The translations under genes were made by a program, and so were the position numbers. The notes below the pieces were generated by a model. That model was not told the origin of the DNA. It did no database searches and saw only the letters and a program-made list of their open reading frames with translations. This document shows positions 4,827-10,345 of a stretch of 35,860 nucleotides of DNA, piece after piece (position 1 is the first letter of the stretch; each line of letters starts with the position of its first letter). The stretch covers positions 14,860 to 50,719 of the forward strand of contig PMTR01000030.1 of the NCBI GenBank assembly GCA_003167255.1. The letters are read 5' to 3'. This DNA comes from Bryobacterales bacterium. Its GTDB lineage: Bacteria; Acidobacteriota; Terriglobia; Bryobacterales; Bryobacteraceae.

Positions 4827-4940
4827 GGTGTTTGCCGGGTGGTAAGTCTTATTTGACCGAAAAAGTTAACGATCTTCGAGCCCCCGCGGTACTGGCGTGG
4901 TACCAACGCGCGCGGGGAACCGGCATAAGGGAATGCCCGC

Positions 4941-5090
4941 ATGCTTGAGCGCGCGGCCCTGGGGGACTTTCTGCTGTTTCGCGGATCGCCGGAGCACGTT
5001 GTCGCGGAAGGCCGGTTTGATCGAAACTGGAAGGTGCCGGCGGACGCCGCCGCAAAGATCACGGCCACCGGCACGATTACGATTCACTGA
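4941..5090 (+). CDS. Candidate 49-aa protein directly upstream of the PLP decarboxylase
   Basis: A short ORF starts at ATG 4941, with an AAGGGA Shine-Dalgarno at 4927-4932 and 8-nt spacing. It stops at TGA 5088-5090, one base before the decarboxylase ATG (5092). The product begins MLERAALGDFLLFRGSPEH, continues with RFDRNWKVPADA, and ends ITATGTITIH. Codon use is GC-rich in the third position like its neighbours. Because the decarboxylase lacks an obvious ribosome-binding site of its own, translational coupling to this ORF is plausible. No family is recognised. It may also be the remaining tail of a decayed gene. The 4717-4940 stretch otherwise holds only the minus-strand micro-ORF. Confidence 0.45.
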   Translation: MLERAALGDFLLFRGSPEHVVAEGRFDRNWKVPADAAAKITATGTITIH

Positions 5091-5091
5091 C

Positions 5092-6483
5092 ATGACACCT
5101 GAAGAATTTCGCCATCATGGGCATCTGGCGATCGATTGGATTGCCGAGTTTCTAGAACACGTGGAGCGCTATCCGGTGCTTCCGCCGGTGAAGCCGGGGG
5201 AATTGACGGACGCGCTGCCGCGGCATGGTCCGGAGCGTGGCGAGCCGATGGAGTTGATCGTCGCGGATTTCGAACGGCTGATCGTGCCGGCCTCGACGCA
5301 GTGGAACCATCCGGGCTTCCTGGCGTACTTCGCGAACTCGTCGACGCCGGAAGGGATTCTGGGCGAGTTGTACACGGCGGCGCTCAACGGCAACGGCATG
5401 TTGTGGAAGACGTCGCCGGCGGTGACGGAGCTGGAGCAGGTGACGCTGCGCTGGCTGCGGCAGTGGAGCGGCCTGCCGGAAGACTGGTTCGGGCTGATCT
5501 ACGACACGGCCTCCACTTCCAGCATGCACGCCATCGCGGCGGCGCGGGAAGCGGCCGACCCGGAATCGCGCACCAAGGGAACCGCGCGAGGACTCGCGGT
5601 GTACACATCGGAGCAATCGCACTCTTCGATTGAGAAGGGCGCGATCGCGGTGGGGATCGGACAGGACAATGTGCGGAAGGTGCCGGTGGACGCGGAGTTC
5701 CGCATGCGGCCGGAGGCGCTCGAGGAAATGATCGAGCGGGACCTGGCGGCGGGGCTGCGGCCGTGCTGCGTGACGGCGACCGTGGGGACCACCTCGACCA
5801 CCAGCGTTGACCCTGTGCCCGCCATCGCGGAGATCTGCCGGCGGCACAAGCTCTGGCTGCACGTGGATGCGGCCTACGCCGGCTCGGCCGCGCTGCTGCC
5901 GGAGTTCCGCTGGGCATTCGAAGGCTGCGACCAGGCCGATTCGTTCGTCACCAATCCGCACAAGTGGCTGCTGGTGCCGATGGATTGCAGCATTTTTTAC
6001 ACACGGCGGCCGGAGGTGCTGAGGCGGGCGTTTTCGCTGATCCCGGAGTATCTGGTGACCCAGGCCGACCCGCGCGCGGTCAACCTGATGGATTACGGCG
6101 TGCCGTTGGGGCGGCGGTTCCGCGCGCTGAAGCTGTGGTTCGTGTTGCGGTCGTACGGCCGCGAGGGATTGGCGGCCGCCCTGCGGGAACATGTGCGCTT
6201 GGCGCAGTGGTTCGCGGGCGAAGTGGAAGCCGACACCCGTTTCGAACTGGCCGCGCCGGCGCGGTTTTCCGTCGTGAACTTCCGGTACAAGGGGAGCGAC
6301 GAAGACAACCGGCGGATTCTGGACGAAGTGAATGCCGCGGGCGACGTCTTTCTCTCAAGCACCGTGCTAAGCGGGAAATACACCATGCATCTGGCCGTAG
6401 GGAACCAATTCACCGGCGAGCGCCACGTGCGGCGGGCGCTCGATCTGTTGCGGGGCGCGGCGCCCGCTGGCGTTTCGGTGTAG
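5092..6483 (+). CDS. Group II PLP-dependent amino-acid decarboxylase (aromatic-L-amino-acid decarboxylase type)
   Basis: This protein of about 463 aa belongs to the pyridoxal-dependent decarboxylase family (DDC/tyrosine-tryptophan decarboxylase group). The N-terminus MTPEEFRHHGHLAIDWIAEF is the typical beginning of the family, which fixes the start at ATG 5092. The cofactor site is NPHKWLLVPMDCS with Schiff-base Lys291. HVDAAYAGSA supplies the Asp that pairs with the PLP ring nitrogen, and SEQSHSSIEKGA carries the ring-stacking His. The enzyme would remove CO2 from an aromatic or related L-amino acid to give an amine in the cytosol; exact substrate cannot be read from sequence. It follows the 49-aa ORF by one base. 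Confidence 0.88.
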   Translation: MTPEEFRHHGHLAIDWIAEFLEHVERYPVLPPVKPGELTDALPRHGPERGEPMELIVADFERLIVPASTQWNHPGFLAYFANSSTPEGILGELYTAALNGNGMLWKTSPAVTELEQVTLRWLRQWSGLPEDWFGLIYDTASTSSMHAIAAAREAADPESRTKGTARGLAVYTSEQSHSSIEKGAIAVGIGQDNVRKVPVDAEFRMRPEALEEMIERDLAAGLRPCCVTATVGTTSTTSVDPVPAIAEICRRHKLWLHVDAAYAGSAALLPEFRWAFEGCDQADSFVTNPHKWLLVPMDCSIFYTRRPEVLRRAFSLIPEYLVTQADPRAVNLMDYGVPLGRRFRALKLWFVLRSYGREGLAAALREHVRLAQWFAGEVEADTRFELAAPARFSVVNFRYKGSDEDNRRILDEVNAAGDVFLSSTVLSGKYTMHLAVGNQFTGERHVRRALDLLRGAAPAGVSV

Positions 6484-6535
6484 CTCAAATGCTCACTGAA
6501 TCTGTTGAGTGGTAGTGTGGCACCAGGAAGCTTAC

Positions 6536-8227
6536 ATGCCATCCAAGAAGGCGAAGAAACGGCCTATCGAGGCCGCGGCGGAGCGTCCGGAGGCCTCTGC
6601 CGCCGCTGCTCCGGCCTTGCGAAGCTGGCTGGAGCGCCATTCCCTGGCCGTTGCCTTGGCCCTGATTCTGATCGCAACCTTGCGCATCGTCTCCACCTAC
6701 ACCGTCTTTAACCACACCTCCGATGAACCGAACCACATCGCTTGCGGCATGGAGTGGCTGGACAAGGGAACCTATACCTACGAAACCCAGCATCCGCCCC
6801 TGGCGCGCATCGCGGCAGCCCTCGGTCCGTTCCTATTGGGCATCCGTTCGCAGGGCCCGGTGGCGCCGGACACCACTTCCGTACCCAAAGAAGGCATCGC
6901 CATCCTCTACAGCGGCCACCACTACGACCTGACTTTAGCTCTGGCTCGTGCCGGCATTCTTCCCTTCTTCTGGATCGCCTGCCTGGTGGTTTACTGGTGG
7001 GGGCGCTGGTACTTCGACGGAAGTGTCGCCGTGGCCGCTGTGTTTCTGTTCAGTTTCCTGCCGGTAACGCTGGCCCACGGCGGTCTCGCCACCACCGACA
7101 TGGCCCTCACCGCCTTCACCGGCGCCGCCTTCCTCTCAGCCATTGTCTGGCTGGAACAGCCAAGCGTCCGCAATTCCGCGATTTTTGGGGGTTGCACAGC
7201 GCTGGCGGTCCTGTCCAAATTGTCGGCGCCGGTTTTCCTGGCCGCCGCGTTTCTGCTGGCGTTCCTCTGGCATGCCTGGGCCGTCCGCCCGCAGCCGGTC
7301 CTGTCAGCGTCCACCGCCCGGCGCCTGATGAAGCCGCTCGCCATCGTGATCGGCGTAGCATTGCTGGTGATCTGGGCGGGATACCGTTTCTCGGTGGGCA
7401 AGGTGGGGGGAATTCCGCTGCCGGCGCCGCAGTTGTTCACCGGTTGGCAGGCCGTGATGCGCCACAACCAGCAGGGCCACCCCAACTACCTGTTTGGCGA
7501 GTTCCGCGTGCACGGATTCTGGGATTATTACCTGGTAGTGTTGGCCGTGAAGACGCAGTTGGCGTTCTTGCTGCTGGCGGGAGCCGGCGTGTGGACCCTG
7601 CTGCGCCGGCCGAACCCTTACCGTCTGGCCTGGCTGCCGTTGATTTTCTCGCTCGCCATACTGGTGGTGGCCATGTGCAGCAACATCAACATCGGCGCGC
7701 GCCACATCTTGCCCATTTACATCGGACTCTCGCTCGCAGCCGCCGCCGGCGTGGCGCGCTTGTGGGAACTCCGCGCTGGACGAAAGTGGCTCGTGGGCAT
7801 CTTAGGCGCCCTGCTCTTCTGGGACGCGGGCGCTTCCCTGATGAGCCATCCCGACTACCTCGCCTACTTCAACGAGCTCGCCGGCAGCCAGCCCGAAAAC
7901 ATTCTCGTGGATTCCAACCTCGACTGGGGCCAGGACTTGAAACGCCTGGGCGAGCGCCTCCGCCAGGCCGGCGCCCGCGAGGTGCACTTCAACCAGTTTT
8001 GGATCGCGGACCTGGAGAAGGAACATGGCTTCCCGCCGGTCCGGGAGATGGACTTTTCGCAGCCGTCTCCCGGCTGGAACGCCGTGGGGCTCACGTACTG
8101 GAGAATCGTGCGGCTGCAATTGCACCAGATGTACCCGCGGGCGCAGTTTTGGCCCGATCGGATTCCGCCCACCGAACGCGTCGGGAAGTCGATTTTGCTT
8201 TGGTATTTCCCCTACCCGGGCGAGTGA
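6536..8227 (+). CDS. GT39-like membrane glycosyltransferase
   Basis: This is a polytopic membrane protein of about 563 aa with a basic cytosolic N-terminus (MPSKKAKKRP) and roughly ten hydrophobic spans. The first periplasmic loop carries SDEPNHIACG and THPPL-like TQHPPLARI, the acidic and HPP motifs of the GT-C fold PMT/ArnT (GT39/GT83) group. A soluble C-terminal part has ILVDSNLDWGQDLKRL, common in acidobacterial phospholipid-carrier-dependent glycosyltransferases. It probably transfers a sugar from a polyprenyl-phosphate donor on the periplasmic face; acceptor unknown. ATG 6536 is preferred because AGGAAG lies just upstream (6524-6529). Confidence 0.8.
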   Translation: MPSKKAKKRPIEAAAERPEASAAAAPALRSWLERHSLAVALALILIATLRIVSTYTVFNHTSDEPNHIACGMEWLDKGTYTYETQHPPLARIAAALGPFLLGIRSQGPVAPDTTSVPKEGIAILYSGHHYDLTLALARAGILPFFWIACLVVYWWGRWYFDGSVAVAAVFLFSFLPVTLAHGGLATTDMALTAFTGAAFLSAIVWLEQPSVRNSAIFGGCTALAVLSKLSAPVFLAAAFLLAFLWHAWAVRPQPVLSASTARRLMKPLAIVIGVALLVIWAGYRFSVGKVGGIPLPAPQLFTGWQAVMRHNQQGHPNYLFGEFRVHGFWDYYLVVLAVKTQLAFLLLAGAGVWTLLRRPNPYRLAWLPLIFSLAILVVAMCSNINIGARHILPIYIGLSLAAAAGVARLWELRAGRKWLVGILGALLFWDAGASLMSHPDYLAYFNELAGSQPENILVDSNLDWGQDLKRLGERLRQAGAREVHFNQFWIADLEKEHGFPPVREMDFSQPSPGWNAVGLTYWRIVRLQLHQMYPRAQFWPDRIPPTERVGKSILLWYFPYPGE

Positions 8228-8299
8228 CGCCCGCAACGTCGATTGCGATATTGCCGGAGCCAGGCACCTCGAGATCAAGGAACCGGGCGGAACAGTTAC

Positions 8300-8305
8300 T
8301 ATAAA
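8300..8305 (+). promoter_or_regulatory. Candidate -10 box 6 nt before the hydrolase start
   Basis: TATAAA is followed by AGCATC and then the ATG at 8312. If it acts as a sigma-70 -10 box, the transcript would start at or next to the A of the start codon, giving a leaderless mRNA. No clear -35 is seen. Confidence 0.35.
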
Positions 8306-8311
8306 AGCATC

Positions 8312-9586
8312 ATGTTCTCACGCGTACTGTGCTTCCTTTCGGCCGGCGTGCTGATGGCGCAGGTGGCGCCCACGGATGCCGGCGGTATCGCACGGGCGGC
8401 CCTGGACCGGCTGCTGGCGCAGAAGTATTCGGAATTGCCGGCCATGCTGGCGCCACAAGCCAAGGCGGCGTACTCCGAGGCGGCCCTGGCCAAGATGGGC
8501 GCCGAGATTCAGTCGTGGGGCGCCGTGCAGGATGTCGGCTTGCCAAGCGTGCGCAAGATAGGGACGGCCAGCATTGTCGCGTTCCAGGTGAAGTTCGCGA
8601 CGCAGACCATCACTTTCCAGTTCTCGGTGACCGAAGAGGGCGCAGTGGCGGTGATGCTGCATTCACCGGCCGCGACACCTTGGCAGCATCCGCCCTATAG
8701 TAAACCGGACTCCTTTAAAGAACGCGAAGTGACGGTGGGCGAAGGGCAATGGAAACTACCGGGCACGCTGACGGTGCCGGTGGGACAAGGACCGTTTCCG
8801 GGCCTCGTGCTGGTGCACGATTCCGGGCCGGGCGATCGGGACGAATCCATGGGCGCGGTGAAAGTCTTCCGCGATCTGGCGGAAGGGCTGGCGTCGCGCG
8901 GCGTGGTGGTGCTGCGGTATGAGAAGCGGACGCGGCAGTATCCGCAGGCGACGCAGACGAAGGATTACACCGTGGAGAAAGAAACCTTGGAAGATGCCGG
9001 GCTGGCGCTGGCGCTGGTGCGCGCGCAGCCGGAAGTGAAAGCGGGCCGCGTCTTCCTGTTGGGTTATGGGCTGGGCGGGTACGTGGCGCCGCGCATCGCG
9101 GAAGCCGACGGCAAGCTGGCGGGAGTGGTGATTGTGAACGCCAACGCGCGCCCGTTGGAAGACGTAACGCTCGACGAGGCGAAGTTCCGGAAAGTGACTG
9201 GAGCGCAAATGCAGACGCTCATCGAGCAGGCCGCCAAGATCAAGAAGCTGTCGCAGGGGGATGAAGACACGGTGCCGCTGATGGGCATGTCGGGTCCGTA
9301 CCTGCTCGATCTGCAAGGCTATAGCCCGGCCGGTCTGGCCAAGCTGCTGGGCGTTCCGCTGCTGATCCTGCAGGGCGAGCGGGATTACCTGCTGAGCACG
9401 AAAGATTTCGACGTCTGGAAGAGCGGCCTGGCGGGGCAGAAGAATGCCACGCTGAAGAGCTATCCGGCATTCGATCGCGTGCTGGTGGCGGGGCAGGGCC
9501 CCAGCACCGAAGCCGACCAACGCAAGCCCGGACAACACGTGGCGCAGGACGTGATCGACGACGTGGCCAAGTGGGTGAACCAGTAG
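8312..9586 (+). CDS. Secreted DUF3887 plus alpha/beta-hydrolase-fold protein, catalytic residues replaced
   Basis: This protein of about 424 aa has a signal peptide (MFSRVLCFLSAGVLMAQ). An N-terminal DUF3887-like domain (about residues 20-125) is followed by an alpha/beta hydrolase domain with GLVLVHDSGPGDRDESMG and VVVLRYEKRTRQYP. Family members have a nucleophile elbow of GHSLGG type. Here the elbow reads LLGYGLGGYVAPRI, so the Ser position is Gly253. The Asp is kept (LQGERDYLLS, Asp358). The catalytic His, normally in a YPxLNHLF motif, is replaced in YPAFDRVLV (Arg389). The enzyme is therefore probably inactive as an esterase or peptidase, and may bind a ligand instead. The frame is intact with normal codon use, so it is not an obvious pseudogene. 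ATG 8312 is preferred over 8243 because the signal peptide begins there. Confidence 0.85.
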   Translation: MFSRVLCFLSAGVLMAQVAPTDAGGIARAALDRLLAQKYSELPAMLAPQAKAAYSEAALAKMGAEIQSWGAVQDVGLPSVRKIGTASIVAFQVKFATQTITFQFSVTEEGAVAVMLHSPAATPWQHPPYSKPDSFKEREVTVGEGQWKLPGTLTVPVGQGPFPGLVLVHDSGPGDRDESMGAVKVFRDLAEGLASRGVVVLRYEKRTRQYPQATQTKDYTVEKETLEDAGLALALVRAQPEVKAGRVFLLGYGLGGYVAPRIAEADGKLAGVVIVNANARPLEDVTLDEAKFRKVTGAQMQTLIEQAAKIKKLSQGDEDTVPLMGMSGPYLLDLQGYSPAGLAKLLGVPLLILQGERDYLLSTKDFDVWKSGLAGQKNATLKSYPAFDRVLVAGQGPSTEADQRKPGQHVAQDVIDDVAKWVNQ

Positions 9587-9652: not shown

Positions 9653-10345
9653 CTACCAGTCCACCGTCTTTCCCGGCTCCAGCGCCCACACTTCGGTCGA
9701 AAGATCCTCGACCAGCGCGGCCAACTGCGCCGGTGTGCCGGTGAGCGGCGGAAATGTTCCGAAGTGCATGGGGATGACTTTCGCCGGCCGCAGCAGCTTA
9801 CAGGCCAGGGCGGCTTCGCGCGGGCTCATGGTGTAGAGATCGCCGATGGGCAGAAAGACGAGATCGGGGTGGTAGAGCTGCTCCACCAGGTGCATGTCGG
9901 AGAAGACGTTGGTGTCGCCGGCGAAATATAGCGCGCGGCCGCCCGGGAAGCGCAGCACGTAGCCGGAGGCTTCTCCGCCGTAGATGATTTTGCCATCGTC
10001 CAGGATGCCGCAGCTATGCACGGCCTGGGTCATGGTGATGGAGACGCTGCCGCACACCTGTGATCCGCCTTTGTTCATGGGGCGAGTCTTCTGCACGCCC
10101 TTCGATTCGAGCCAGCAGCAGGTCTCATAGATGGCGACCACCTCGGGTGAGAAGCGCGCGGCCAGCGGCGGAGTGTCGTGGATGTGGTCGAAGTGGCCGT
10201 GCGTGATGCAGATGGTGTCGACGCGCGTGATTTGGTGGTGTTTGGGGTAGGAAGGGTTTCCCTCGATCCAGGGGTCCATGAGGATGACTTGGCCCGAGGG
10301 GAGTTCGAATTGGAATGAGCCGTGTCCAAGCCAGGTGATTCGCAT
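9653..10345 (-). CDS. UPF0173-type metallo-beta-lactamase-fold hydrolase
   Basis: This is a 230-aa cytosolic protein of the metallo-beta-lactamase superfamily. MRITWLGHGSFQFE at the N-terminus and ITHGHFDHIHD (the HxHxDH metal motif) define it. Further metal ligands are supplied by the FAGDTNVF segment and by a late PMHFGTFPPLTG segment, as in UPF0173 (YtkL-like) proteins. It should bind two metal ions, and the substrate of the family is not established. Length is normal. The gene is convergent with the hydrolase-fold gene at 8312, with a perfect inverted repeat between them. Confidence 0.88.
   Translation of the reverse strand: MRITWLGHGSFQFELPSGQVILMDPWIEGNPSYPKHHQITRVDTICITHGHFDHIHDTPPLAARFSPEVVAIYETCCWLESKGVQKTRPMNKGGSQVCGSVSITMTQAVHSCGILDDGKIIYGGEASGYVLRFPGGRALYFAGDTNVFSDMHLVEQLYHPDLVFLPIGDLYTMSPREAALACKLLRPAKVIPMHFGTFPPLTGTPAQLAALVEDLSTEVWALEPGKTVDW

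What the first reader, a model, noticed from the sequence alone, without database searches (positions are those of the whole stretch)
8312..9586. Secreted hydrolase-fold protein with both the nucleophile Ser and the catalytic His replaced
The elbow reads GYGLGG instead of GHSLGG (Gly253), and the expected His of YP-x-x-NH is Arg389, while the Asp (358) and overall fold signatures remain. Losing two of three catalytic residues while keeping a clean frame suggests a repurposed binding or sensing protein.
Basis: partly seen in the sequence, partly recalled or inferred. Interest (0 to 1): 0.6.

Follow-up and report, generated by a model that had tools for sequence, protein, structure and literature searches.

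The report
Dead-active-site EstD-like secreted esterase relative
A soil bacterium carries a probably exported relative of a known esterase that has lost the chemistry for cutting esters, yet it and its relatives are kept intact by selection, so it has probably been turned to a non-cutting job such as binding a molecule.

Summary
The 424-residue ORF at 8312-9586 has Gly at the nucleophile position (253), Arg at the catalytic His position (389) and keeps Asp358. It matches the EstD esterase model over nearly its full length, below the equivalog cut-off. A third change was missed: the oxyanion-loop Gly170, present in all 73 Ser-bearing homologues with a letter there, is Asp. The same-genus orthologue (90% identical) shares all three. 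In the 14-row tree subclade holding the window protein, 13 rows lack Ser (9 Gly, 4 Asp). Ser-less pairs are under purifying selection within the range of Ser-bearing pairs (window pair dN/dS 0.16). Their departures from conserved positions concentrate in the catalytic loops; five Ser-bearing groups show no such concentration. Decay is therefore unlikely. Best reading: an exported pseudo-esterase that binds without cutting; ligand and partner unknown. Non-catalytic alpha/beta-hydrolases are known in animals (neuroligins, NDRG3), so this is a new variant of a known kind. The Gly170Asp / Ser253Asp alternation is the oddest feature. No usable structure model could be made.

The parts
8312..9586 (+). 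CDS of EstD-like protein without catalytic Ser and His, 424 aa
   Evidence: NCBIfam NF041096 esterase EstD, 294.6 bits (cut-off 600), residues 20-424
8312..8359 (+). probable signal peptide, residues about 1-16
   Evidence: hydrophobic N-terminus (Kyte-Doolittle mean of 12 residues up to 2.45); read by eye, no predictor available
8402..8650 (+). DUF3887 (NTF2-like) domain, residues 31-113
   Evidence: Pfam PF13026, 30.6 bits, just under gathering score 31.8
8672..9583 (+). alpha/beta-hydrolase domain, residues about 121-424 (limits set by eye)
   Evidence: Pfam DLH PF01738 residues 153-275, 28.4 bits (cut-off 21)
8819..8821 (+). Asp170 in place of the oxyanion-loop Gly
   Evidence: Gly in 73 of 73 Ser-bearing homologues with a letter there; the role as oxyanion loop is recalled from the fold
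9065..9070 (+). Tyr252-Gly253 in place of His-Ser of the nucleophile elbow
   Evidence: His252 in 74 of 74 Ser-bearing rows (Ser253 defines the rows)
9383..9385 (+). Asp358, triad acid retained
   Evidence: Asp in 88 of 89 EstD-like rows, the other a gap
9476..9478 (+). Arg389 in place of the catalytic His
   Evidence: His in 82 of 89 EstD-like rows
8297..8303 (+). -10-like box TACTATA, 8 nt before the start codon
   Evidence: box TAnnAT(A/G) within 25 nt of the start in 19 of 23 clade rows
9653..10345 (-). convergent neighbour, metal-dependent hydrolase (MBL fold), synteny marker
   Evidence: NF001911, 246.6 bits, over cut-off 144; also downstream in L003, L004, L005, L006, L011, L014

Best explanation
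An exported pseudo-esterase. It descends from EstD-type serine carboxylesterases (DUF3887 plus alpha/beta-hydrolase). Shown by sequence: nucleophile Ser is Gly, base His is Arg, oxyanion-loop Gly is Asp, the acid Asp and the scaffold remain, and the gene is under purifying selection. Inferred: it cannot form or resolve an acyl-enzyme, so it does not work as a serine hydrolase. The Asp170-Arg389-Asp358 set probably forms a charge network where the triad stood. The kept body of the domain, with residues invariant or nearly so in the family (Arg202, Tyr203, Arg206, Glu224, Asp228), binds a small ligand or a protein partner without turnover, perhaps together with the NTF2-like N-terminal domain.
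For: Same three changes in the same-genus orthologue. 13 of 14 rows of its tree subclade lack Ser. dN/dS in four Ser-less pairs 0.157, 0.163, 0.182, 0.202 against 0.11-0.33 in 13 Ser-bearing pairs. Positions conserved at 95% or more in Ser-bearing rows: Ser-less rows depart at 7 of 15 in the catalytic loops and 4 of 32 elsewhere (Fisher p 0.023); five Ser-bearing groups depart at 0-1 of 15-16 in the loops. R202, Y203, R206, E224, D228, Y330, W369 unchanged in 13 of 13 Ser-less rows. Own promoter-like box kept. NTF2-like domains of the DUF3887 kind were proposed to have a non-catalytic ligand-binding role (PMC3924330, passages).
Against: No activity, binding or expression data. No usable model (mean pLDDT 37), so the pocket and the salt bridge are not seen. 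Some alpha/beta-hydrolases run other chemistry without Ser (recalled). The loop enrichment counts position 253 itself, by which the rows were chosen (without it 6 of 14), and rows are related, so the p value is only indicative. By cells the Ser-less rows also depart more outside the loops (40 of 416, 9.6%) than the Ser-bearing groups do (2.3-7.3%), so the rest of the protein is somewhat freer too. Only one pair of genomes carries the exact GYGLGG/Arg/Asp170 set.
Confidence: 0.72

Rival explanations
1. Still an enzyme, with a carboxylate as nucleophile or base: Asp170 (or Asp253 in sister lineages) replaces Ser, as Asp does in haloalkane dehalogenases and epoxide hydrolases (recalled).
For: Asp170 in 7 of 13 Ser-less rows of the subclade, all with Gly253; Asp253 in 4 of 13, all with Gly170; Asp170 in none of 73 Ser-bearing rows with a letter there. 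Asp253 rows keep His389 and Asp358, formally an Asp-His-Asp triad. The own-genome DLH-family protein L114 has Glu right after the same beta3 VH.
Against: In the window pair the base His is Arg, so no general base for the second step. The alternation rests on few events: I count about 9 lineages on the tree, and the fewest changes are 4 for Asp170, 3 for Asp253 and 3 for either. The DLH mapping is uncertain: MAFFT opens a gap there and HMMER aligns another DLH one residue off.
Confidence: 0.13
2. Decaying copy: relaxed selection after loss of need, on the way to a pseudogene.
For: Ser-less states are scattered over related lineages, and positional orthologues L006 and L014 keep Ser and His.
Against: Full-length open frames and dN/dS 0.16-0.20 in four Ser-less pairs; departures are concentrated in the catalytic loops.
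Confidence: 0.05
3. Non-catalytic partner, inhibitor or chaperone of a Ser-bearing EstD paralogue in the same cell.
For: 6 of 13 genomes with a Ser-less copy of this subclade also hold a Ser-bearing EstD-like copy (G020, G030, G036, G067, G094, G101).
Against: The window genome (98.85% complete) has no such second copy, only a distant GHSEGG homologue; none was seen in the other 6 genomes (G001, G045, G049, G053, G065, G077; G049 has a short piece matching residues 366-422 only; some of these genomes are incomplete).
Confidence: 0.1

Closest known systems
Esterase EstD (Thermotoga maritima; NCBIfam NF041096)
   Same: Alignable over residues 20-424 of the window protein; the Thermotoga maritima control genome is among the 4 of 14 that ring in the family search.
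   Different: 294.6 bits against a cut-off of 600; no Ser nucleophile, no His, Asp in the oxyanion loop. That EstD itself has a Ser-Asp-His triad is recalled; a search for its locus name found no paper.
NDRG family and neuroligins (non-catalytic alpha/beta-hydrolase folds)
   Same: Alpha/beta-hydrolase-type proteins with the triad substituted: NDRG3 is called non-enzymatic, neuroligins devoid of a functional triad (PMC7022630, PMC5943944, passages).
   Different: Animal proteins of other hydrolase families; in NDRG3 the whole triad is replaced and helices block the substrate path (passages). The bacterial protein has a DUF3887-like domain and keeps Asp358. No kinship closer than the fold is claimed.
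Dienelactone hydrolase (DLH)
   Same: Pfam DLH match over cut-off; an acidic residue, Glu36, is named as important for catalysis in DLH (PMC4108320, passages); its place after beta3 is recalled.
   Different: DLH has a Cys-His-Asp triad; the window protein has Gly, Arg, Asp. Equivalence of Asp170 and Glu36 is not settled.

Membership tests
EstD-type esterase (NF041096) | full-length homology | tested here: met
   294.6 bits, profile 18-419 of 421
EstD-type esterase (NF041096) | score above the equivalog cut-off | tested here: not met
   294.6 against 600; the four relatives scored (L003, L006, L008, L016), one of them Ser-bearing, also lie under it
EstD-type esterase (NF041096) | Ser-Asp-His triad | tested here: not met
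   Gly253, Asp358, Arg389
EstD-type esterase (NF041096) | esterase activity | not testable with these tools
   needs an assay
Non-catalytic alpha/beta-hydrolase (pseudoenzyme) | catalytic residues substituted in a conserved, maintained lineage | tested here: met
Non-catalytic alpha/beta-hydrolase (pseudoenzyme) | fold retained | tested here: inconclusive
   Pfam and EstD profile matches; model of mean pLDDT 37 unusable
Non-catalytic alpha/beta-hydrolase (pseudoenzyme) | no catalytic activity, another role instead | not testable with these tools
   needs biochemistry
Asp-nucleophile alpha/beta-hydrolases (haloalkane dehalogenase, epoxide hydrolase type) | Asp at the elbow with His and acid | tested here: not met
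   window has Gly253 and Arg389; met by residues only in L008, L010, L011, L018 of 89 rows
Dienelactone hydrolase | Cys nucleophile | tested here: not met
   Gly253

The most novel reading that the evidence does not exclude
One bacterial family is rebuilding the serine-esterase centre around a carboxylate, supplied either from the elbow (Asp253) or from the oxyanion loop (Asp170) but in no row both, giving a new catalytic or charged-ligand-binding site rather than mere loss; the window protein is an end state in which Arg389 pairs with that carboxylate.
Probability: 0.15. Interest if true: 0.7.

Novelty: new variant of a known kind. Interest (0 to 1): 0.45.

Why it matters
The non-catalytic alpha/beta-hydrolases named in the papers seen here are animal proteins. 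Here a bacterial family offers relatives with Ser, Ala, Asp or Gly at the nucleophile position, and with His kept or replaced, some at the same chromosomal place. That is a natural series in which loss of catalysis and gain of a new role can be tested. It also warns that naming such proteins 'esterase EstD' or 'alpha/beta hydrolase' by similarity alone would be wrong.

Tried and rejected
Structure: AlphaFold2 with the two sequences I took the rule to allow (window protein, L032) gave mean pLDDT 37.2, so no fold search was run on it. Viral contigs: no relative. The genome-contig scan gave one locus. Sequence searches of solved structures found only distant alpha/beta-hydrolases, matched over part of the hydrolase domain. 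Decay was tested by dN/dS and is disfavoured. A single loss confined to the 13 Ser-less rows: holding them as one clade without L007 is rejected (AU p 1e-8; the group was named after the tree was seen, and the close pair L007/L008 is probably what breaks it), so either several losses or a return of Ser in L007. DLH Glu36 as the counterpart of Asp170: a recalled lead, inconclusive. Literature: eight searches ran; two of them found no paper. Of the papers listed I opened six, by passages only; none of those passages reports a Ser-less EstD protein. The library lacks most subscription journals, so this is no proof that none is in print. A sigma-70 consensus scan found one site, at 8672-8701, inside the gene, and none at the start codon. 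A first, looser box pattern near the start codon hit 27 of 86 EstD-like loci; the stricter one was chosen after reading those sequences.

Full report
The object. The ORF 8312-9586 (+) encodes 424 residues with a hydrophobic N-terminus that looks like a signal peptide (by eye; [quoted passage not shown] NCBIfam gives one family at E 0.01, esterase EstD, over residues 20-424 with 294.6 bits, half the equivalog cut-off of 600. The window's genome has 7.35 Mb and is 98.85% complete; two searches found this one EstD-like gene and one distant homologue with an intact GHSEGG elbow. The same-genus genome corresponds to a record titled Bryobacterales bacterium isolate palsa_349.

The observation. To see what is normal I searched 150 and then all 237 held genomes of the family, 257 of the order, of which 237 are the family again, and 297 spread over the phylum. 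In the family, 55 of 237 genomes match at E 1e-60 or better. In the order, 60 of 257 match at 1e-40, all in the same family; only about 20 genomes there lie outside it. In the phylum, 33 of 297 match at 1e-40, 31 of them outside the family, of which I read 24. Aligned were 89 sequences scoring at least 120 bits by tblastn. 20 weaker ones, looked at, were left out: 19 with Ser and His, and one (L054) cut off before the elbow with Gln at the His position. Three further matches (G193, G203, G225), seven and many weak family matches were not read. L032 and L087-L089 were dropped as repeats.

States at positions 170, 253, 358, 389 (89 rows): Gly-Ser-Asp-His 70; Asp-Gly-Asp-His 5; Gly-Asp-Asp-His 4; Asp-Gly-Asp-Arg 2 (the window and its same-genus orthologue); Gly-Gly-Asp-Tyr 2; Gly-Ser-Asp-Gly 2; Gly-Ala-Asp-His 1; Gly-Gly-Asp-His 1; and two partial rows with a gap at one of these positions. 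The 24 phylum sequences read all have Ser and His. So Ser is most likely ancestral, and the window pair has lost Ser, His and the oxyanion-loop Gly.

Phylogeny. In a tree of 67 rows, built without the motif columns and with two partial sequences left out, the window protein lies in a 23-row clade (support 100/99). Within it is a 14-row subclade (90/84, not a starred branch) in which 13 lack Ser (Gly 9, Asp 4); only L007 has it. Of the other nine rows of the clade, eight have Ser and L012 has Ala. L050, far off and on the longest end branch, has Gly. The fewest Ser/non-Ser changes are 4. Holding the 13 Ser-less rows as one clade is rejected (AU p 1e-8), so Ser was either lost several times or regained in L007. 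Codons fit: the eight Ser rows and L007 use AGC, the Gly rows GGC, GGG or GGA, the Asp rows GAC or GAT.

Not decay. Nei-Gojobori dN/dS for four Ser-less pairs is 0.157, 0.163 (window pair, dN 0.054, dS 0.33), 0.182 and 0.202; the mixed pair L007/L008 gives 0.201, and 13 Ser-bearing pairs, some sharing a member, give 0.11 to 0.33. In the window pair the DUF3887 part is looser (0.35) than the hydrolase part (0.12). The metal-dependent hydrolase gene downstream, convergent in the window, is also downstream in L003 (about 1 kb away), L004, L005 and L011 (Ser-less) and in L006 and L014 (Ser), 6 loci besides the window's among 89, 85 of which have 700 bases or more downstream. These are probably positional orthologues with different active sites. 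A -10-like box TAnnAT(A/G) lies within 25 nt of the start codon in 19 of 23 clade rows (8 nt before it in 13, 5 nt in five, 9 nt in one), against 1 of 1130 background windows and 3 of 64 other EstD-like genes. The four misses are L006, L011, L015 and L019; in the last two my start codon is probably wrong. The pattern was set after seeing the sequences. The upstream genes differ, so the gene seems to have its own, perhaps leaderless, promoter, kept in Ser-less copies too.

Where the change sits. At positions where Ser-bearing rows are at least 95% uniform, the Ser-less rows depart (20% of rows or more) at 7 of 15 positions in the four catalytic loops, which I set from the fold, and at 4 of 32 elsewhere (Fisher p 0.023; position 253 is included by construction). 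Five Ser-bearing groups, each tested against the rest, depart at 0/16, 1/16, 0/16, 0/15 and 1/15 in the loops, and at 2/33, 6/32, 2/35, 4/33 and 0/29 elsewhere. The nine-row group of these is not a clade, since it includes L007. By cells the Ser-less rows depart in 24.6% of loop cells and 9.6% of the others; the Ser-bearing groups in 0.7-8.7% and 2.3-7.3%, so the Ser-less rows are somewhat freer outside the loops as well. The changed positions outside the loops are 166, 276, 289 and 400; Gln289, in 74 of 74 Ser-bearing rows, is something else in 8 of 13 Ser-less rows. Arg202, Tyr203, Arg206, Glu224, Asp228, Tyr330 and Trp369 are unchanged in all 13. So most of the conserved body of the protein is held while the catalytic centre is free or re-tuned.

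A carboxylate that moves. In the 13 Ser-less rows of the subclade, Asp170 occurs in 7, always with Gly253; Asp253 occurs in 4, always with Gly170; the remaining two (L004, L005) have neither, and Tyr for His. The two Ser-less rows outside the subclade, L012 (Ala) and L050 (Gly), have Gly170. Asp170 is absent from all 73 Ser-bearing rows with a letter there. I count about nine lineages; by fewest changes Asp170 needs 4, Asp253 3, and either of them 3, so this is suggestive only. Asp253 with His389 and Asp358 is by residues the triad of haloalkane dehalogenases (recalled). In the window pair there is an Arg instead of the His, and I infer a salt-bridge network of Asp170, Arg389 and Asp358. No model could show it.

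Function. Best reading: an exported pseudo-esterase that binds without cutting. Literature seen as passages: DUF3887 and two related NTF2-like domains were proposed to have a non-catalytic ligand-binding role, and domains of that set occur N-terminal to alpha/beta-hydrolase domains (PMC3924330). NDRG3 is described as a non-enzymatic alpha/beta-hydrolase fold protein with the triad replaced (PMC7022630), and neuroligins as devoid of a functional triad (PMC5943944). That neuroligin's Ser is a Gly is recalled, not read. Ligand and partner stay unknown; 6 of 13 genomes with a Ser-less copy of the subclade also have a Ser-bearing EstD-like copy, the window's genome does not.

Verdict. Observation confirmed; the interpretation of a repurposed protein is supported as to loss of catalysis and maintenance, and untested as to binding or sensing. 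New variant of a known kind, moderate interest.

Noticed in passing
L008, L010, L011, L018: EstD-like proteins with Asp at the nucleophile position (GHDLGG or GHDFGG) and His and Asp kept: formally an Asp-nucleophile triad inside a serine-esterase family.
   Followed up: partly
window 8297-8303: A -10-like box TACTATA 8 nt before the start codon; a box of this kind near the start in 19 of 23 clade members although the upstream genes differ: looks like a leaderless promoter.
   Followed up: partly
L029, L078: Two EstD-like proteins of another clade keep Ser but read Gly where the catalytic His should be.
   Followed up: no
L050: A distant EstD-like protein on a long branch with GHGMGA, an apparently separate loss of Ser.
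   Followed up: no
window 4897-8227: The pyridoxal-dependent decarboxylase gene upstream in the window recurs upstream of the EstD-like gene in L003 (94% identical) and L018 (73%), with a short piece in L007 (53% over 53 residues); the PMT_2-like glycosyltransferase gene between them in the window matched the flank of no other locus.
   Followed up: partly
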